This document shows, in pieces, positions 8,801-21,063 of a DNA stretch of 64,000 bases; positions within the stretch are counted from its first letter, which is position 1, and every line of letters starts with the position of its first letter. The notes beneath the pieces were generated by a model, which saw nothing but the letters and a program-made list of their open reading frames with translations, had not been told where the DNA came from and ran no database searches. A program made the translations under genes and the position numbers. Source of the stretch: Amphibalanus amphitrite (lineage: Eukaryota > Arthropoda > Thecostraca > Balanomorpha > Balanidae). The DNA lies in the NCBI RefSeq assembly GCF_019059575.1, contig NW_024882031.1, forward strand, positions 310,001 through 374,000, written 5' to 3'.

Positions 8801-9720
8801 CCTCTCTCCCACACACACAGCGCGCCGAATGAACTGATTTCGCGCGGAGTCGCCGCCGACTCCCGCTGTACGGCCCCGTCATGGCGGCCGGTCGCGCGCC
8901 AAAGTACACCCCGCCGCCGAGACACACCGCGGCGCCCCGCGCGCGCGCAAATTGTCCACCGAAGCTCATCACCACAAAAATAGCAGCAGCGGGTCGGCAG
9001 TAGCGCGCGCCACCCGCACACATACACACAGGCTCACACATCGGCGACACAACTCAGCATTACACCGTGCCCCCGGTCACTCTCCCCACCCATCACACAC
9101 GGTAATGCCAGGCTGAGCAAACGGGGCGCCCGCCGAGCGGGGGCGGGGCAGGGGGGCGGGACGGGGCGGGCCGCTAGCGAGATCAGGGCCCGACGCCCGG
9201 CCTATGTACACGGGGCCTCTCACTGACGGAATGCTCATAATACTGACGCGTCGGATGGCCGGCCGGACGGCGCGCACGGCGGCGGCCGCCCGGCCGGCTG
9301 ACGTCATGAGAAGAGATAAAATAGGGCGAGAGAGGGTGAGGGAACGGGAGGGGACGGGCAGCGGGAGGGACGCACCCCGGGATGAGACACAACGCACGAG
9401 CGAAATACGTAATGCACTTATGGAATATCATGCACGAGCCAGGCGCTGCGCGCGGCCGGCGCACGCGGGCCCATCGCTCATAAAATAGCAGCTTTGTACA
9501 CAGAACACTTGTGCGGCGCCCTTGTCGATTGGTCGCTGCGCGCGAGCCGGCTGGCCGCGCCCCGCCTACGCTACCGTCCCGCGCCGCTGCGCCACCGGGC
9601 GCGCCCACTCTATGTACACTAGCGCCACGCAGCGGCGCGCGGCAGAGTCAATAGGTATCACATGGGACGCGCTGCGCCGCGGCTGGCCACAGCGCCACGT
9701 GCGGCCGTCTGCCACAGTTC
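8800..9720. promoter_or_regulatory. CpG-island-like block between two convergent genes
   Basis: This roughly 0.9-kb block is sharply richer in G+C and CpG than its flanks, with many GCGCGC and GGCCGG runs and a complete CRE palindrome TGACGTCA at 9299-9306. It lies between the 3' ends of ANKMY2 (+) and the E-protein gene (-), where no promoter is expected for either gene. The open frames across it are composition artefacts. It may be an orphan promoter for a non-coding or antisense RNA, or only a GC-rich patch. Confidence 0.35.
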
Positions 9721-10095
9721 GGGTGTCACTGGCTGCCGTTAGGTGTCGCTACTGTTGATGCTGTAAGGAGTGCGAGGGCACCGCGCCCTGAAAACAAAGA
9801 CGAATGTCTGTCAGTGAGAAAGGAATTCGCCCAGGTCACCGTACCATGACGAATCAACTGAGCCGACTAACGGCATTACCTTCACATCCAAAAAAATCCG
9901 TCTTATTTATGGGAGGAGCTCGAAGGTCCCACGAAAATTATATCCGAATACAATCACCGGAAAATGCGCAGACGTTTGAGTCACAGCGCTATTACCATTC
10001 GAGACACTCCCTGCAGTCCAGTTCTAGAAGTAGCCCAACTTGGTTATCATGCAGTAACAAGTAAAAAGAAAAGAAAGAAAAAAGAAGATATCGTA

Positions 10096-10250
10096 CTAGG
10101 TGCTACGTACGGCGTGGCTGACGTTGGTCACGTTCATGTTGAAGGGGATGCCGGCGCCGGCGGCGGCCGGGTGGAGGTGGTGAGGGATGTCGTCCCCCTT
10201 CTCCTCCTCCCGCCGCTTCAGGCAGGCCGCCTTCGGGTTCAGGTTACGCT
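10096..10250 (-). CDS. da: E-protein (daughterless/TCF) terminal coding exon
   Basis: The exon follows a TCCGCAG acceptor and begins with two bases that complete GAG. It encodes RNLNPKAACLKRREEEK, the hallmark sequence that directly follows helix 2 in all class I bHLH E proteins. A short species-specific tail ends NVSHAVRST and the TAG at 10096-10098. Both alternative HLH exons (15077-15222 and 15291-15436) end in phase to splice here. The tail of about 33 residues after EEEK is shorter than in Drosophila Da. No clear poly(A) signal is seen just downstream. Confidence 0.93.
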
Positions 10251-12797: not shown

Positions 12798-15076
12798 TCA
12801 CCACAGATACCCCGATAGCCAACTGATCATTTGAACAACACCCAACACAATCGCTTACGGGAAGGCAGCGCACACAACAAATCTAAAAACAAACAAGCTG
12901 TTTCAACACAGCTAGGAACCATCAAGAAGCTAACAAAAGCCGAGCTGGCAGACAATCCGACTCGGAAATCGGGACCAGCGCCGCGCGGCACGCTACCCAG
13001 ACTGACATAGCATGCGATGTGTGCGGTAATTGACGGCAGCAATGCGGTCTGGCCGCCATGCAGGGTGTGTCAGAGCCAAATCCACCGCGGCGAACCGGCC
13101 GGTGGACGGACCGGGAGCCCGGTGCCGAACGACAGACAGACGGCGAACAGACAGACGTGCAGGCAGGCGGACCGACAGACAGACAGAAATACAGACAGAC
13201 GGACCGAGACACAAACAGGTACACAGCTGTCGCTTCACCGGGGTCACGGCCGACGACTGACATTTCAGAGCGAAATGTCAGCCCCAGCTGCTGGCGAGAC
13301 ATTTACAGGGCTACACCTATCATGACAGCGTCCACGTCTTAACAGAAAAGTATCACAGGCCGGGCAGTAAGCACAACAAAATAGACGACTCATCGGAAAC
13401 AAAGCAAGTAAAATATCCATAAAACGTGTATCGCTCTTATGCACGATCAAACTCAACCCAGCGCCGCAATAACACTGGTCTGGACAGCATACAGCACAGA
13501 CGCTCAAAACTAACGACCCCAGCCATGAAACCACCCCTCTACACTCACACAAGCTGCCATGGACCATGAGACAGTTGCCTCCCTGCAGACAACGGGACCA
13601 ACACAGACCACCAGCACTTGTCTCGGCTCTAAACCACTCATTGTCCGTCCAAATCCACCCACCGTGCACAAATCCCGAGAGCGGCTCGTGTAAAAACCAT
13701 AACGACTCCGTGATACTTAACATAGCTCGTCGGTCTAAGCTGGCGTGTCTGAACGTTAAGTTGGATGTCCTTGAGCACGCGCCAGACTAAAAATTGCCCA
13801 CTATGATTCTCGCAAAAATCGGATTTTAGCTAATTCATTGCCAGTGAACTACTCAGTAGAGCGTTAAGGGATGTAACCGTTAACAACTACATCGCGGAAA
13901 ATTAGAAACCCACCAGTCCAAATGAATACAATGGAAGAGAGGCAACGGTTTTACATAACGCTCCTCGTCTATATCCGGTGCAATTCCATTTGAGCATCCG
14001 GCCATTGAAAAACATAACACAAGCGCATCCGAATCAGATTTACCAAAAACGGGTGGACGGCGTCGTGACAGGTCCCACAATTTCAGCAAGAAAACACCAC
14101 AAAGTGATTCCTCGATCAGCAAACGGGACCCAATTTGCCCGTAAGCCGTTTATCCGCGAAACCGGTGCGCTTCGAGCTCAGGTTCGAGCCCAATCTTTCT
14201 ACACCATCAAATACATGCCCGATGCACCACACCAAAACAACTGACACCAAATATGAACAGGCGCCGCCGGAACTTGGTCATACTATCGTCGGAAAACGCC
14301 GGACCAATGATGAGGGGAGCGGTGCGCGAGGGAAGCACCTCTGACACAGTCGAAAACGCTCGACAATCTCAAGGACAACGCTCACATGACGGCACGATAC
14401 CCCACCAGCCACCTCACCAAGTTCCCCAACACCAATCATGCAGACATAAGAGGCTAGCTCTAGAAAAAAACGACACACCAACACGCCAAAACACACCCTT
14501 TTCCAGCAGCGGCGGTGGCAGCTCTGAAATACCTGCCGTCCGTCCATCCACCACCGTGAATATTCAGCCAACCGTAACACAGAGAACGGACAGAGACGGA
14601 CGCCAACGGATAGCAGGCAGCAGACACACACACACACACACCAACCAGGGACAGTGCAGGCGCACACCACACCCAGGCACCAATCGGGCGACACGACTCA
14701 CAGACACAGAGGAGGGGTGCGACGGGGCCGGCCCGGCCGACAACACGAGACGCTCGCATAGTTTCAGACACAGAGGCGGTTAGATTGTATGCAGAATACT
14801 GCAATTTCACTGTTACAATGCTAAGTTTTTCATGATTGAAACACGATAAGTGAAATGCCTCTGTTTCTCCAAACTCTGCGAGTCCGTGCGTCACGGTGAC
14901 TGGATTGTGTTCAGTACCGAGGTGTGCGCCCTGCGGTCGGAAATGCTAGCCCATCAGCGGCGTCACTGATTGGCCAGCACTCCGTCAGCAGCGCGCACAG
15001 CTCCGGCCGAACACGCACTACTATCCGGTCACCGCGGTCGGCCGTCCGGCCCGGCGGCGACCCGCCCTCGCCTGAC
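12798..15076 (-). other. Remainder of the last E-protein intron
   Basis: Intron sequence between the hAT-like element and the HLH exons. It contains a GACA-type simple repeat at 13126-13215 and a short CA run near 14628-14640. No ORF here looks like protein. Confidence 0.6.
13126..13215 (+). repeat. Degenerate (GACA)n simple repeat
   Basis: Interrupted runs of GACA units, for example GACAGACAGACAGA near 13180, interspersed with GGCGGACC. It lies within the E-protein last intron. Confidence 0.8.
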
Positions 15077-15222
15077 CTCGAACTTGCTGCTCCAGGGTCA
15101 TGATGACATCGACAGCCAGGTTGAGCACGCCCAGCTTGGTCTGCGGCTTGTCCTGCTTCATGTGCGCCATGCACATCCTGCCGAGCTCTTTGAGCGCCTC
15201 ATTGATGTCGCGAATGCGCACC
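15077..15222 (-). CDS. da: E-protein helix-loop-helix exon B (canonical Da-like form)
   Basis: A 146-nt exon with a GGCAG acceptor and a GAG|GTCAGG donor. It starts with one base completing the AG|G arginine codon and ends with one base of the GAG codon shared with the terminal exon. It encodes [34 protein letters not shown] and [15 protein letters not shown], which matches the Drosophila Da HLH almost residue for residue ([31 protein letters not shown]). Helix 1, loop and helix 2 carry dimerisation with tissue-specific bHLH partners. Its length and both phases equal those of exon A upstream, so the two look mutually exclusive. Confidence 0.92.
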
Positions 15223-15290
15223 CTGCCGGGGCGGCGCCGACGGCGGTCAGCCGGCGGCGGCCGGGGCGGGGGCGGGGGCGGCACACCTAC
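15223..15290 (-). other. 68-nt intron separating the two HLH exons
   Basis: It starts GTAGGT and ends GGCAG on the minus strand. The best branch-point-like motif, CTGAC, is at intron positions 41-45, about 43 nt from the donor. That is close to the minimum spacing at which a spliceosome can assemble in animals generally, so joining exon A to exon B directly may be sterically impeded. The intron is nearly all G and C. Confidence 0.7.
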
Positions 15291-15436
15291 CTCGGACCTG
15301 CGCCTCCAGCTGGCTGATCACTTCGACGGCATGGTGCAGAATGCCCAGCTTGGTCTGCGCCTTGTCCGTCGCCATGTGCACAGTGACCATGCGACCAAGC
15401 TCTTTGAACGCCTCGTTTATGTCTTTGACGCGGATC
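15291..15436 (-). CDS. da: E-protein helix-loop-helix exon A (divergent alternative form)
   Basis: A 146-nt exon with a CCCCCAG acceptor and a GAG|GTAGGT donor, in the same phases as exon B. It encodes [34 protein letters not shown] and [15 protein letters not shown]. It is plainly an E-protein HLH. It has EAF and KAQTKL as in vertebrate E47-type exons, but unusual residues at the end of helix 1 (VTVH for CM.H), in the loop (ATDK for KSDK) and in helix 2 (SQLEAQ for TLEQQ). The open frame, splice sites and conserved core argue against a decayed copy. Confidence 0.9.
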
Positions 15437-17066
15437 CTGGGGGGCAGCGGGTCAGCAGCGGTGAAGGCGGCGCGCCGCTGGCCCCTCTCAGACCCGACCG
15501 CACTCGGCGGCGACGGCCACAACGAGCATGCCCCAAAAGCTCGCCATTTAGACGGAGGCCTTGCCTCAGAGTGAGGGTGAATGAAAACGTACCCAATTTT
15601 TCCAAACGACTAAAGTAAGACAGGACAGGGAAGAAGGAATATTATATAAAGCCGAACCAGAAACTGAACCACATACGCCTTGGGCGTTAGAGACCAGAGT
15701 GCGTGGCCACGGACAGGCGCGGGAAGACGGCAAGAAGTGGAGGACCAGGGACACCGGGTAACACAAAGGGAAGAGAGGCGTGCAGCAAACGGCAAGACCA
15801 GAAACAAACAACTCAGGCGGCCAGCCACAACAACCAGGCTAACTCAACGCAAACGGTGTACAAACAAACGGTAAATCAAACTGTGTCAATATCCATACAG
15901 CAACAAAATACAGCAAATACCGTCAGTACTGTTTAGCTATGAGGGCAGCAGACTGCACTAGGGTACTAGTAAAAATACTGGCTACCCGAAAAATGCTAAT
16001 TGGTACTCCAATATTCCGAACAGATTTACGTTACTCACAAAAAGCCAAGAATTTTGGCTTATCTAACGGATCATCAAACAAGATTACGTTAAATATTTAC
16101 GGTCACTGCTAGGCTTCATTATCCAAGAACAAGATCTTACTGATTTAACGGAACAAAACACCAAAAAATAAAACCCATTACACACAACACCGATCTAGAC
16201 CACAGAAACATATTTCATGCATCGTGCTGAATAATCCCTCCCGACTGCTGGCCTGGGTCTGTAATCTAGTTATCCCCCTCCCCCCTCCCAGATCAGACGC
16301 ATAAGTCCTTACCATCTCCGTCCGGACAAATACCCACTAATCCGCCTACTTCACCCGCCCACAGCTCACGTCTGCTCAGCTCCAACCCCATCTCCATGTC
16401 TCCGTCCCAGTTATCTGCCTCTCATGACGTCACACCCGCCCCACTGACGTCATCAGAGGTAATCGGTCGTGGCCGCCGTCACTGGGAGATATCGTCCAGT
16501 GAGATGGGCCGCGCGGCGCCGCACGTTTCCGGCGCGAGGGAGGGGGGGGGGGGCTAATAAACCCGTTCCGGGGAGACCTCAGCCCGTCCCGTCCCTGCGC
16601 GGCCCGGCGGGCCCACCTAGACATTCCATTCGCTCAACCGGCCGGTTCAGTTAGCCGAGAGTCGCTCCGTGACAGAGCCATGGTCAAACCTGAGCAAGGT
16701 ATTGTGAAATTTGATACTCCGGCGTGAGGTGGATATCGAGTAGAAAGCGACACCAACGGCTTTATTTTTTATCGCAATTTGAACGGCATTTTTGAAGGCT
16801 TGTACCCGCGGACAGTGGACCTTGATAAGAAAAAGACAGTTACTAAAACGCAACACTTACCTCTCGAATGCCGTCGCAATCAGAAGAATACCTCACCTGC
16901 TTACCACCTACCTCTTACCACCTAGCCATCTGAGACGTCCCGTCCCCTCCTATCCTTTTCGGTTTCCTTTCCTGTACTGTTCCTCCCATCCCCATTCCCC
17001 AGTACCTATCCGCCCGGCCAGCAGCCCCCGACCGCCACCACCGCGCGCGCGCTCTGTGACACGTAC
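15437..17066 (-). other. E-protein intron upstream of HLH exon A
   Basis: Non-coding. It carries two full CRE palindromes at 16425-16432 and 16445-16452 (separate entry). The acceptor of exon A is preceded by GCTGAC and a C run, a compact but good 3' splice site. Confidence 0.7.
16425..16452. promoter_or_regulatory. Paired CRE palindromes TGACGTCA in an E-protein intron
   Basis: Two complete TGACGTCA octamers, starts 20 bp apart, about two helical turns. CREB/ATF-family dimers bind this octamer. A second pair with nearly the same spacing is at 40969-40997. Binding is inferred from the motif only. Confidence 0.45.
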
Positions 17067-17180
17067 CTCTCCCGCTGGTTGTTGGCGCTGCGTCGCTCCT
17101 TCTCCCGGAGGAGTTTGGTGCCCGGGTCGAGGTCAGTCTCATCTTCGCTGCAACAATCGACATCGGACCGTTGTCCAGGG
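17067..17180 (-). CDS. da: E-protein basic-region exon
   Basis: The exon ends REKERRSANNQRER at an AG|GTACGT donor and carries the DNA-binding basic region shared by both HLH exons. Upstream it is acidic (CCSEDETDLDPG), as in Da, which has an acidic stretch before REKERRQANNARER. The oddity is NNQRER, where E proteins have NNARER. The 5' boundary is uncertain: the acceptor AACAG gives 17180, while TTGCAG would give 17147. Both keep the frame and differ by 11 residues. Confidence 0.88.
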
Positions 17181-18226: not shown

Positions 18227-18350
18227 TATCTCCGCGCCCGCTTGGCCTTTGAGGAGGCGGCCGAGGCGGCCGAGGTGGTCGAGGCGGCCACCGAGCTGGA
18301 GGACAGGTTGGACGCCAGGTCCGTGCTGTCGGGAGCGTCCTTCCGCTTCT
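18227..18350 (-). CDS. da: E-protein exon with KRK and KAKRARR basic clusters
   Basis: A 124-nt exon, CACAG acceptor and ATA|GTAAGT donor. With the last base of the previous exon it reads KKRKDAPDS, then a Ser/Ala/Thr-rich linker, then SKAKRARRY. Da has the same order, KKRKE followed much later by KRPRRY just before the acidic stretch and basic region. The clusters are likely nuclear localisation signals. The linker is much shorter than in Drosophila. Confidence 0.85.
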
Positions 18351-18587: not shown

Positions 18588-18837
18588 TGGCGCCGGCGGG
18601 TGTCCTGTCCGCCGTATCGGTGGGCGACACCAGCTGGCCGTAGGGCGGCGCAGAGCCGGCGGCCGCCCGCAGGCCCGCCACGTGCTGCTCCATGTTGTAC
18701 AGCAGACCGTTACCGTGCGGGTGCTGCGGCGGCGGCGGCCCGCCGGCGGCCGGGTGCAGGCCCATGCCGGCCGGCGGCTCGGCGTGGCTCCTCATCACCA
18801 TCAGGGCGTCATCGAGCCGCTCCTCGATCCGGCCCCC
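18588..18837 (-). CDS. da: E-protein exon with the EERLDDAL helix
   Basis: A 250-nt exon with a GTACAG acceptor and a CCA|GTGAGT donor. It opens GGRIEERLDDALMVMRSHAE, corresponding to VRMEERLDDALNVLRNH of Da and IEDRLERLDDAIHVLRNHA of vertebrate TCF4, the conserved helix of the second activation region. The rest is Gly/Pro/Ala-rich with MEQHVAGLRAAAGSAPP. It starts in phase 0 and ends in phase 1, so it cannot be skipped without a frameshift. Confidence 0.88.
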
Positions 18838-19433: not shown

Positions 19434-19496
19434 CTGTGCGTGATCCCTCAGAAGGCCGATGGCATCATCCAAATGCTCGTCGGGCATTCGAGGGTT
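19434..19496 (-). CDS. da: E-protein 63-nt cassette exon with a second LDDAI helix
   Basis: A 21-codon exon in phase 0 at both ends, acceptor TTTGACAG and donor CAG|GTGAGT. It encodes DEHLDDAIGLLRDHAQ, a second version of the helix encoded by 18588-18837. Because it is a multiple of three and phase 0/0, it can be included or skipped without harm. Inclusion would give an E protein with two LDDA helices in tandem. Confidence 0.82.
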
Positions 19497-19889: not shown

Positions 19890-19949
19890 CGGGGTGGTGG
19901 GGACCGCGGCTCCTCCGTACCCGCCGCCCGCCTGCTCCGGGGAATATAT
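19890..19949 (-). CDS. da: E-protein 60-nt exon (IYSPEQ)
   Basis: A 20-codon phase 0/0 exon with a TTTTCAG acceptor and a CCG|GTACGT donor. It encodes IYSPEQAGGGYGG and AAVPTTP. In vertebrate E proteins, the sequence GKALAS is followed by IYSPDH and a segment ending in STPVGSP, so this exon continues the preceding one exactly as expected. Confidence 0.85.
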
Positions 19950-20115: not shown

Positions 20116-20322
20116 CGACGCCAGCGCCTTGCCGAGTGTGTCGCCGGTGTTGGGCGGCTGTGCGGGCGGCGGCGGCGGCGGTGCCGAGGGGGGTGGCGCG
20201 CCGCTGTACATGGGCGAGCCGGCTGACATCAGCGGGGACACGGCCGCCGGTGTGGAGGACGGCGGCGCGCGGAACGACGCCATCGACGGCAGACCCGTGG
20301 ACAGGTCGGCGCCGCCGCAGAC
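20116..20322 (-). CDS. da: E-protein exon with GLPSMASFR and GDTLGKALAS
   Basis: A 207-nt, phase 0/0 exon; acceptor CGTCAG, donor TCG|GTGAGT. It encodes DLSTGLPSMASFR (LPPMSTFH or LPPISSFR in other E proteins), a proline-rich linker, and TGDTLGKALAS, which matches the conserved TGDALGKALAS start of the loop-helix activation domain (AD2). The domain is thus assembled from this exon and the three that follow. Confidence 0.9.
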
Positions 20323-20883: not shown

Positions 20884-21063
20884 CATGCCGTCAGCGATCG
20901 ACGTCATGCCGTAGTGGGGCGACGCCTGGGCCGTGCCCATGAGGCCGCCTGGCGAGTAGGTCGAATACTGTGGGTTCCACGGATCGCCGCCAGGGGCGCC
21001 CCCGTCGAGGAAGTAGGATCCGTACCGGCCGGCCGGGTCCGTGGAGTAGTCATCACCAACATA
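20884..21063 (-). CDS. da: E-protein exon with DDYSTDPAG...DPWNPQ
   Basis: A 180-nt phase 0/0 exon with a CATTTCAG acceptor and an ATG|GTGAGT donor. It encodes YVGDDYSTDPAGRYGSYFLD, then GDPWNPQYSTYSPGGLMG and SPHYGMTSIADGM. The spacing of DY, D, FxDG and DPW parallels the TCF4 segment DYNRDSPGY...FFMQDGHHSSDPW. It is read on the minus strand; the open frames overlapping it in other phases are shadows. Confidence 0.85.

What the first reader, a model, noticed from the sequence alone, without database searches (positions are those of the whole stretch)
15077..15436. Two mutually exclusive helix-loop-helix exons in an arthropod E-protein gene
Two adjacent exons of identical length (146 nt) and phase each encode a full HLH. 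B is Da-like ([21 protein letters not shown]). A is divergent ([31 protein letters not shown]). Both join the same basic-region exon and the same RNLNPKAACLKRREEEK exon. Since 146 is not a multiple of three, using both or neither breaks the frame. Vertebrate TCF3 makes E12 and E47 by the same kind of choice. I know of only one HLH in Drosophila da, so this is either an ancestral arrangement kept here or a convergent one. Partner choice or homodimerisation could differ between the two forms.
Basis: partly seen in the sequence, partly recalled or inferred. Interest (0 to 1): 0.88.

Follow-up and report, generated by a model that had tools for sequence, protein, structure and literature searches.

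The report
Either-or dimerisation exons in arthropod E-protein
One arthropod gene for a master developmental regulator carries two adjacent versions of its pairing module, and the DNA layout suggests that each finished protein gets only one of them, which could let one gene choose between partners.

Summary
On the minus strand, 15436..15291 (A) and 15222..15077 (B) are 146-nt, same-phase exons, each completing a helix-loop-helix (HLH) between a shared basic-region exon and a shared ERNLNPKAACLKRREEEK exon. Using both or neither breaks the frame; either alone gives an open frame of 440 residues across ten joined exons. It is the only E-protein gene that two searches of the 807-Mb assembly found. 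A second haplotype carries both exons, identical over 542 nt, although the haplotypes differ at 3.97% of non-coding sites. A does not look decayed. The 68-nt intron between A and B has one usable adenine, about 44 nt from A's donor, below the ~50-nt limit described for vertebrate mutually exclusive exons; no other intron I measured was under 100 nt. The pair is very probably mutually exclusive, enforced by crowding and frame.

It works like vertebrate E12/E47 but is not the same exon unit: there the choice also swaps the basic region. A weak tree puts B with fly Da (recalled sequence) and A outside, hinting that the duplication predates the split from the fly. A butterfly da with temperature-dependent mutually exclusive exons is published; the passages seen do not say which domain they encode. 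No RNA data were available.

The parts
15291..15436 (-). Alternative exon A (146 nt), divergent [51 protein letters not shown]
15077..15222 (-). Alternative exon B (146 nt), Da-like [51 protein letters not shown]
15223..15290 (-). 68-nt GT..AG intron between A and B; adenines only at positions 3, 44 and 67, so one candidate branch site (CTGAC)
15020..15561 (-). 542-nt block (A, B, intron, flanks) identical on both haplotypes
17067..17180 (-). Shared exon with the N-terminal half of the basic region, ending SANNQRER
10111..10250 (-). Shared exon ERNLNPKAACLKRREEEK, joins to A or B
9749..9787 (-). Last coding stretch ending GAVPSHSLQHQQ-stop; presumed 3' UTR follows
18227..18350 (-). Upstream coding exon
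18588..18837 (-). Upstream coding exon with LDDALMVMRSHA motif (second copy, likeness judged by eye)
19434..19496 (-). 63-nt coding exon with LDDAIGLLRDHA motif (first copy)
19890..19949 (-). Upstream coding exon (IYSPEQ..)
20116..20322 (-). Upstream coding exon (..GDTLGKALAS, E-protein similarity)
20884..21063 (-). Upstream coding exon; exons further 5' not mapped

Best explanation
This is an E-protein gene (Daughterless/TCF3-4-12 type), the only one found in this assembly. A tandem duplication of its HLH exon gave two mutually exclusive exons, and each mRNA takes A or B. Shown: anatomy, phase, intact frame with either exon, presence on both haplotypes, a single candidate branch adenine. Inferred: U1 on A's donor and U2 on B's branch site cannot both assemble because they are about 44 nt apart, so A is not joined to B; any A-B or skipped mRNA that does form has an early stop and would be destroyed. 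Inferred: both isoforms share the DNA-contacting NNQRER half of the basic region, so the choice mainly changes the dimerisation surface. A keeps most of the expected helix core and has a more polar helix 2. The likely effect is a shift in homodimerisation or partner preference of the E-protein with which class II bHLH factors pair.
For: Exons and frame. HLH domain in both. One locus plus one allele. Conservation: 0 differences in 292 nt of A+B against 14 in 884 nt of six upstream exons (one-sided Fisher p 0.018), and the only one of 14,166 overlapping 542-nt windows with no difference. Selection on A: dN 0.31/0.30/0.26 against dS 0.64/1.30/2.14 by NG86/YN00/ML; simulation. Intron: one candidate branch A at position 44 of 68. 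Intron lengths elsewhere: shortest ~187 of 18 myosin estimates, ~103 of 63 kinesin estimates, 166 among 8 others in this gene; introns hidden inside 44 stop-bearing matches show excess lengths of at most 30 or at least 174 nt. The ~50-nt limit: passages of PMC7969005 and PMC5740500.
Against: No transcript evidence. The ~50-nt limit comes from vertebrate work; flies splice many introns this short (recalled), though the sample here shows none. B's splice sites look weaker than A's (donor GTCAGG; one U in its 17-nt acceptor tract), so B, the more Da-like form, would need help to be used. Haplotype identity could partly reflect local recent ancestry; the basic and downstream exons are identical too, and the comparison with six upstream exons was chosen after seeing the data. 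Intron lengths are estimates that count alleles separately.
Confidence: 0.82

Rival explanations
1. Exon A is a relic of a tandem duplication, kept by chance and rarely or never spliced in.
For: No transcripts examined; A is on the longest branch of the small tree.
Against: A is open, has splice sites at least as good as B's, scores above B against Pfam HLH, keeps 31/48 residues at high dS, and is identical on two haplotypes.
Confidence: 0.07
2. The pair descends directly from an ancestral E12/E47 pair shared with vertebrates: A corresponds to E47 (both KAQTKL) and B to E12 (both KPQTKL).
For: A/P correspondence at position 26; A+E47 not rejected, AU 0.191; the alternative segments end near the same protein place, QVR.
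Against: The vertebrate segment starts upstream of the basic region, here it starts inside it. Over 48 residues A is no closer to E47 (32) than to the E12-type chain (32), and closest to TCF4 (34). A, B and recalled Da share G31 against vertebrate L31.
Confidence: 0.1
3. Double inclusion or skipping is a regulated output: the frameshifted mRNA tunes E-protein dose, and A is mainly a poison exon.
For: Both aberrant products have early stops.
Against: A alone gives a complete conserved HLH protein, which a poison exon need not do; the 44-nt donor-branch distance argues against A-B joining.
Confidence: 0.06
4. The tandem is an assembly error.
For: The assembly lists many HLH loci twice.
Against: The two exons differ at 42 of 146 nt and the same order and spacing occur on two separate contigs.
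Confidence: 0.01

Closest known systems
Vertebrate TCF3 (E2A) exons 18a/18b, giving E12 and E47 (which exon gives which form: recalled)
   Same: Same gene family, alternative HLH, same downstream ERNLNPK segment; exons 18a and 18b treated as mutually exclusive (PMC12585103 passages).
   Different: The vertebrate unit also swaps the basic region and residues before it (the two chain types differ there); here the first half of the basic region is shared. The human intron between the exons holds an intronic conserved region tied to regulation; here the whole intron is 68 nt.
Bicyclus anynana daughterless wet- and dry-season exons (PMC9218548)
   Same: An arthropod da with a mutually exclusive exon pair, temperature dependent, checked by qPCR and PCR (section 9 read; passages).
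   Different: What I saw does not say which protein part the exons encode; both were unannotated before, which argues a little against their being the HLH.
Steric-type mutually exclusive exons (OGDH 4a/4b; alpha-tropomyosin and alpha-actinin cited there)
   Same: Branch site within about 50 nt of the upstream alternative donor (PMC7969005 passages).
   Different: In OGDH the branch sites are distant from the acceptor with a large pyrimidine tract; here the intron itself is very short and GC-rich, with the branch candidate 24 nt from the acceptor end.
COE/EBF duplicated HLH exon in vertebrates (PMC2394523, abstract and outline seen)
   Same: Tandem duplication of an exon coding part of an HLH.
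   Different: There inclusion of the duplicate is mandatory; here the two would exclude each other.

Membership tests
E-protein (class I bHLH) | HLH domain closest to TCF3/TCF4 among solved chains | tested here: met
   best hits E2-alpha and TCF4 for both isoforms
E-protein (class I bHLH) | ERNLNPKAACLKRREEEK after helix 2 | tested here: met
   18 of 18 identical to a recalled human E12; also chain 8ubk
E-protein (class I bHLH) | N-terminal AD1 with LLDFS-type motif | tested here: inconclusive
   regex and tblastn gave no AD1 on this strand; 5' exons may lie elsewhere
Mutually exclusive exon pair | Adjacent, similar, same length and phase; joint use or skipping breaks the frame | tested here: met
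Mutually exclusive exon pair | Junction reads for each exon and none stable between them | not testable with these tools
   no RNA data on hand
Steric-type mutually exclusive exons | Branch adenine less than ~50 nt from the upstream donor | tested here: met
   only one adenine outside the splice sites, position 44; met by position only, branch use itself not mapped
Vertebrate E12/E47 exon pair (orthologous unit) | Alternative segment includes the basic region and residues before it | tested here: not met
   here the shared exon encodes up to NNQRER
Vertebrate E12/E47 exon pair (orthologous unit) | A and B pair with E47 and E12 in a tree | tested here: inconclusive
   six sequences of 48 residues, Da recalled; of four trees AU rejects only A+Da (0.039)

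The most novel reading that the evidence does not exclude
The HLH exon pair arose before this animal's lineage (a crustacean, I suspect) split from insects. Drosophila lost A, while other arthropods, perhaps including the butterfly with temperature-switched da exons, keep it. In these animals one splicing decision at the E-protein gene resets partner choice for the whole bHLH network, independently of the vertebrate E12/E47 switch, and without touching the main DNA-contacting residues.
Probability: 0.27. Interest if true: 0.86.

Novelty: new variant of a known kind. Interest (0 to 1): 0.64.

Why it matters
E-proteins are the common partner of tissue-specific bHLH factors for nerve, muscle and sex determination. 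Vertebrates diversified them by three genes plus the E12/E47 choice; arthropods are usually described as having one gene and one form (both statements recalled). A conserved either-or HLH here would mean that an arthropod can make two E-protein forms with different dimerisation surfaces, and gives a natural experiment in which dimerisation varies while the core of the DNA-contacting region is constant. It also offers a concrete hypothesis for the butterfly result.

Tried and rejected
Relatives: viral-contig scans with B (no pattern match) and A (34 pattern matches, none a relative) gave nothing. By their descriptions the other collections open to me hold prokaryotes, phages or plasmids; I did not search them, and distribution in arthropods could not be tested. 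An RNA hairpin in the 68-nt intron: no more stable than shuffles (z 0.34), rejected as a mechanism. Human-like hnRNP H control (recalled): GGG runs lie downstream of B and upstream of A, but in GC-rich sequence this is no evidence. Species: the assembly size made me think of a barnacle; the passages read gave no matching size, so no species is claimed, and even arthropod rests on B's likeness to a recalled Da. Printed Da sequence: a text search for a peptide found 0 papers. That library lacks most subscription papers.

Full report
What is there. On the minus strand, an exon ending at 17067 with ..RRSANNQRER is followed by exon A (15436..15291, 146 nt) and exon B (15222..15077, 146 nt), 68 nt apart, and then by an exon starting at 10250 with the rest of ERNLNPKAACLKRREEEK. 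Joining through A gives [61 protein letters not shown]; through B gives [62 protein letters not shown] plus B shifts frame and stops; skipping both stops one codon after RER. Mapping further exons from 21063 to the stop codon at 9749 gives one open frame of 440 residues plus stop with either exon, ten exons joined, all junctions in phase (exon ends read by me). The 5' part of the gene was not mapped. The window lies in an assembly of 807,550,619 bases in 2,644 contigs. Queries with B and with A each found 4 matches at E <= 0.001: A and B here, and A and B on contig C1369, which is 95.7% identical to the window over a 14.8-kb alignment. The simplest reading is one E-protein gene with two haplotypes. 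The HLH family scan listed 98 matches, A's exon among them on both contigs; B's exon alone was not listed.

Is A real? A and B share 31 of 48 residues and 104 of 146 nt. Distances are dN 0.31, 0.30 and 0.26 and dS 0.64, 1.30 and 2.14 by NG86, YN00 and ML, so the duplication looks old; the spread of dS shows how uncertain so short a stretch is. Under neutral change from B at 0.635 substitutions per site, 28% of 20,000 runs stayed open but none kept 31 identical residues; at 0.3, 3.9% did. Both isoforms match Pfam HLH (A 50.1 bits, B 43.9) and have E2-alpha and TCF4 as best solved relatives. A is as close to the vertebrate chains (E12-type 32, E47 32, TCF4 34 of 48) as B is (32, 33, 33), and A and B are no closer to each other (31). 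Between haplotypes, A, B, the intron and flanks form a 542-nt run without a difference (15020-15561), the second longest of 14 runs of at least 150 nt and the only zero-difference window among 14,166 overlapping windows of that size in the 14.7-kb aligned block (123 windows have at most one), where non-coding sites differ at 533 of 13,418. A+B have 0 differences in 292 nt against 14 in 884 nt of six upstream exons (one-sided Fisher p 0.018); the basic and downstream exons also have none. This fits constraint on sequence as well as protein, though shared local ancestry could add to it.

How exclusion could work. The 68-nt intron has only three adenines: position 3 (donor), 44 (in CTGAC) and 67 (acceptor AG). 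If an adenine is the branch point it must be position 44, about 44 nt from A's donor. Papers on vertebrate mutually exclusive exons put the limit for the two complexes to assemble together near 50 nt (PMC7969005 passages; PMC5740500 passages, where 57 human clusters, 9%, were classed so). To ask whether such introns are normal here I estimated 18 introns in myosin genes (shortest ~187) and 63 in kinesin genes (shortest ~103; alleles counted separately, 110 of 139 matches used; one further pair about 666); 8 other introns measured in this gene are 166 or longer. None was under 100. Introns of a length divisible by three can hide inside one match; among 44 matches with stops inside, the excess lengths were at most 30 or at least 174 nt. 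In the human survey 377 clusters, 60%, also carry the frame safeguard seen here. B has the weaker sites: donor GTCAGG and one U in its 17-nt acceptor tract, against GTAGGT and two for A. So use of B probably needs active help or repression of A; this is inference. The intron does not fold better than shuffles.

What the choice changes. The NNQRER part is shared, so the choice affects the last basic residues, both helices and the loop. Of the 17 differences, position 10 (F in A, L in B) falls on a core position by the usual heptad pattern (recalled, not modelled), position 41 is uncertain, and the rest look like loop or surface, with helix 2 more polar in A (H35, S41 against L35, M41). I therefore expect both to fold and dimerise, with different strength or partners. 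No structure was predicted.

Relation to E12/E47. E2-alpha chain 8ubk (E12-type by recall, KPQTKL) and chain 2ypa (E47-type; 7wz6, named E47 in the record, has nearly the same residues) differ already before the basic region, KAEREKERRV against KDLRDRERRM, and agree from LEQQVR on through ERNLNPKAA, where 2ypa ends. So the vertebrate alternative unit covers the whole bHLH, whereas here it begins after RER. The 3' boundary matches at protein level; intron positions in vertebrates were not examined. The A/P difference at position 26 matches E47/E12, but that is one site. In a six-sequence tree of 48 columns, B joined fly Da (recalled) with bootstrap 88 and A stood apart; AU values were 0.906 for that tree, 0.264 for A+B, 0.191 for A+E47 and 0.039 for A+Da. 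B and Da share I3, L10, M18, N34, M41 and T42; A keeps V3 and F10 of all three vertebrate chains and H34 of two. Against this, A and B share M21, and A and Da share I1 and E38. I read this as a modest lean to a duplication older than the split from the fly, with loss of A in the fly, not as proof.

Literature. A search of the held library found an insect case that bears directly on this: in the butterfly Bicyclus anynana, daughterless shows mutually exclusive splicing between seasonal forms (delta PSI 0.84), with two previously unannotated exons (PMC9218548, section 9; passages). Which domain they encode is not stated in what I saw. In the wasp Cotesia vestalis 19 da isoforms are listed (PMC8228208 passages). 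The human survey names TCF3 among genes with three such clusters; its section on human and fly, which I read, names no da case.

Verdict. It is a new variant of a known kind: an E12/E47-like choice with a different exon unit, in what is very probably an arthropod.

Noticed in passing
window 19434-19496 and 18588-18837, minus strand: A possible second tandem duplication in the same gene: two neighbouring exons each carry an LDDA(I/L)..(L/M)R.HA motif (recalled human E12 has one, LDEAIHVLRSHA; likeness of the second copy judged by eye). The first exon is 63 nt and symmetric, so it could be a cassette.
   Followed up: partly
window 17067-17083, minus strand: The basic region reads NNQRER where the solved E2-alpha and TCF4 chains shown have NNARER; both haplotypes have Q.
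   Followed up: partly
G000 contig C1366, 116359-119022: Three tandem stretches match the same Pfam myosin-head segment (376-436; two of them with a TAG inside the match), like the known alternative exons of arthropod muscle myosin (recalled).
   Followed up: no
window 9067-9798: The longest run identical between haplotypes (732 nt) covers the last coding stretch and the presumed 3' UTR of this gene, suggesting constraint there.
   Followed up: no
whole assembly G000: Many HLH matches occur in pairs of equal score on different contigs, as if both haplotypes were assembled separately.
   Followed up: partly
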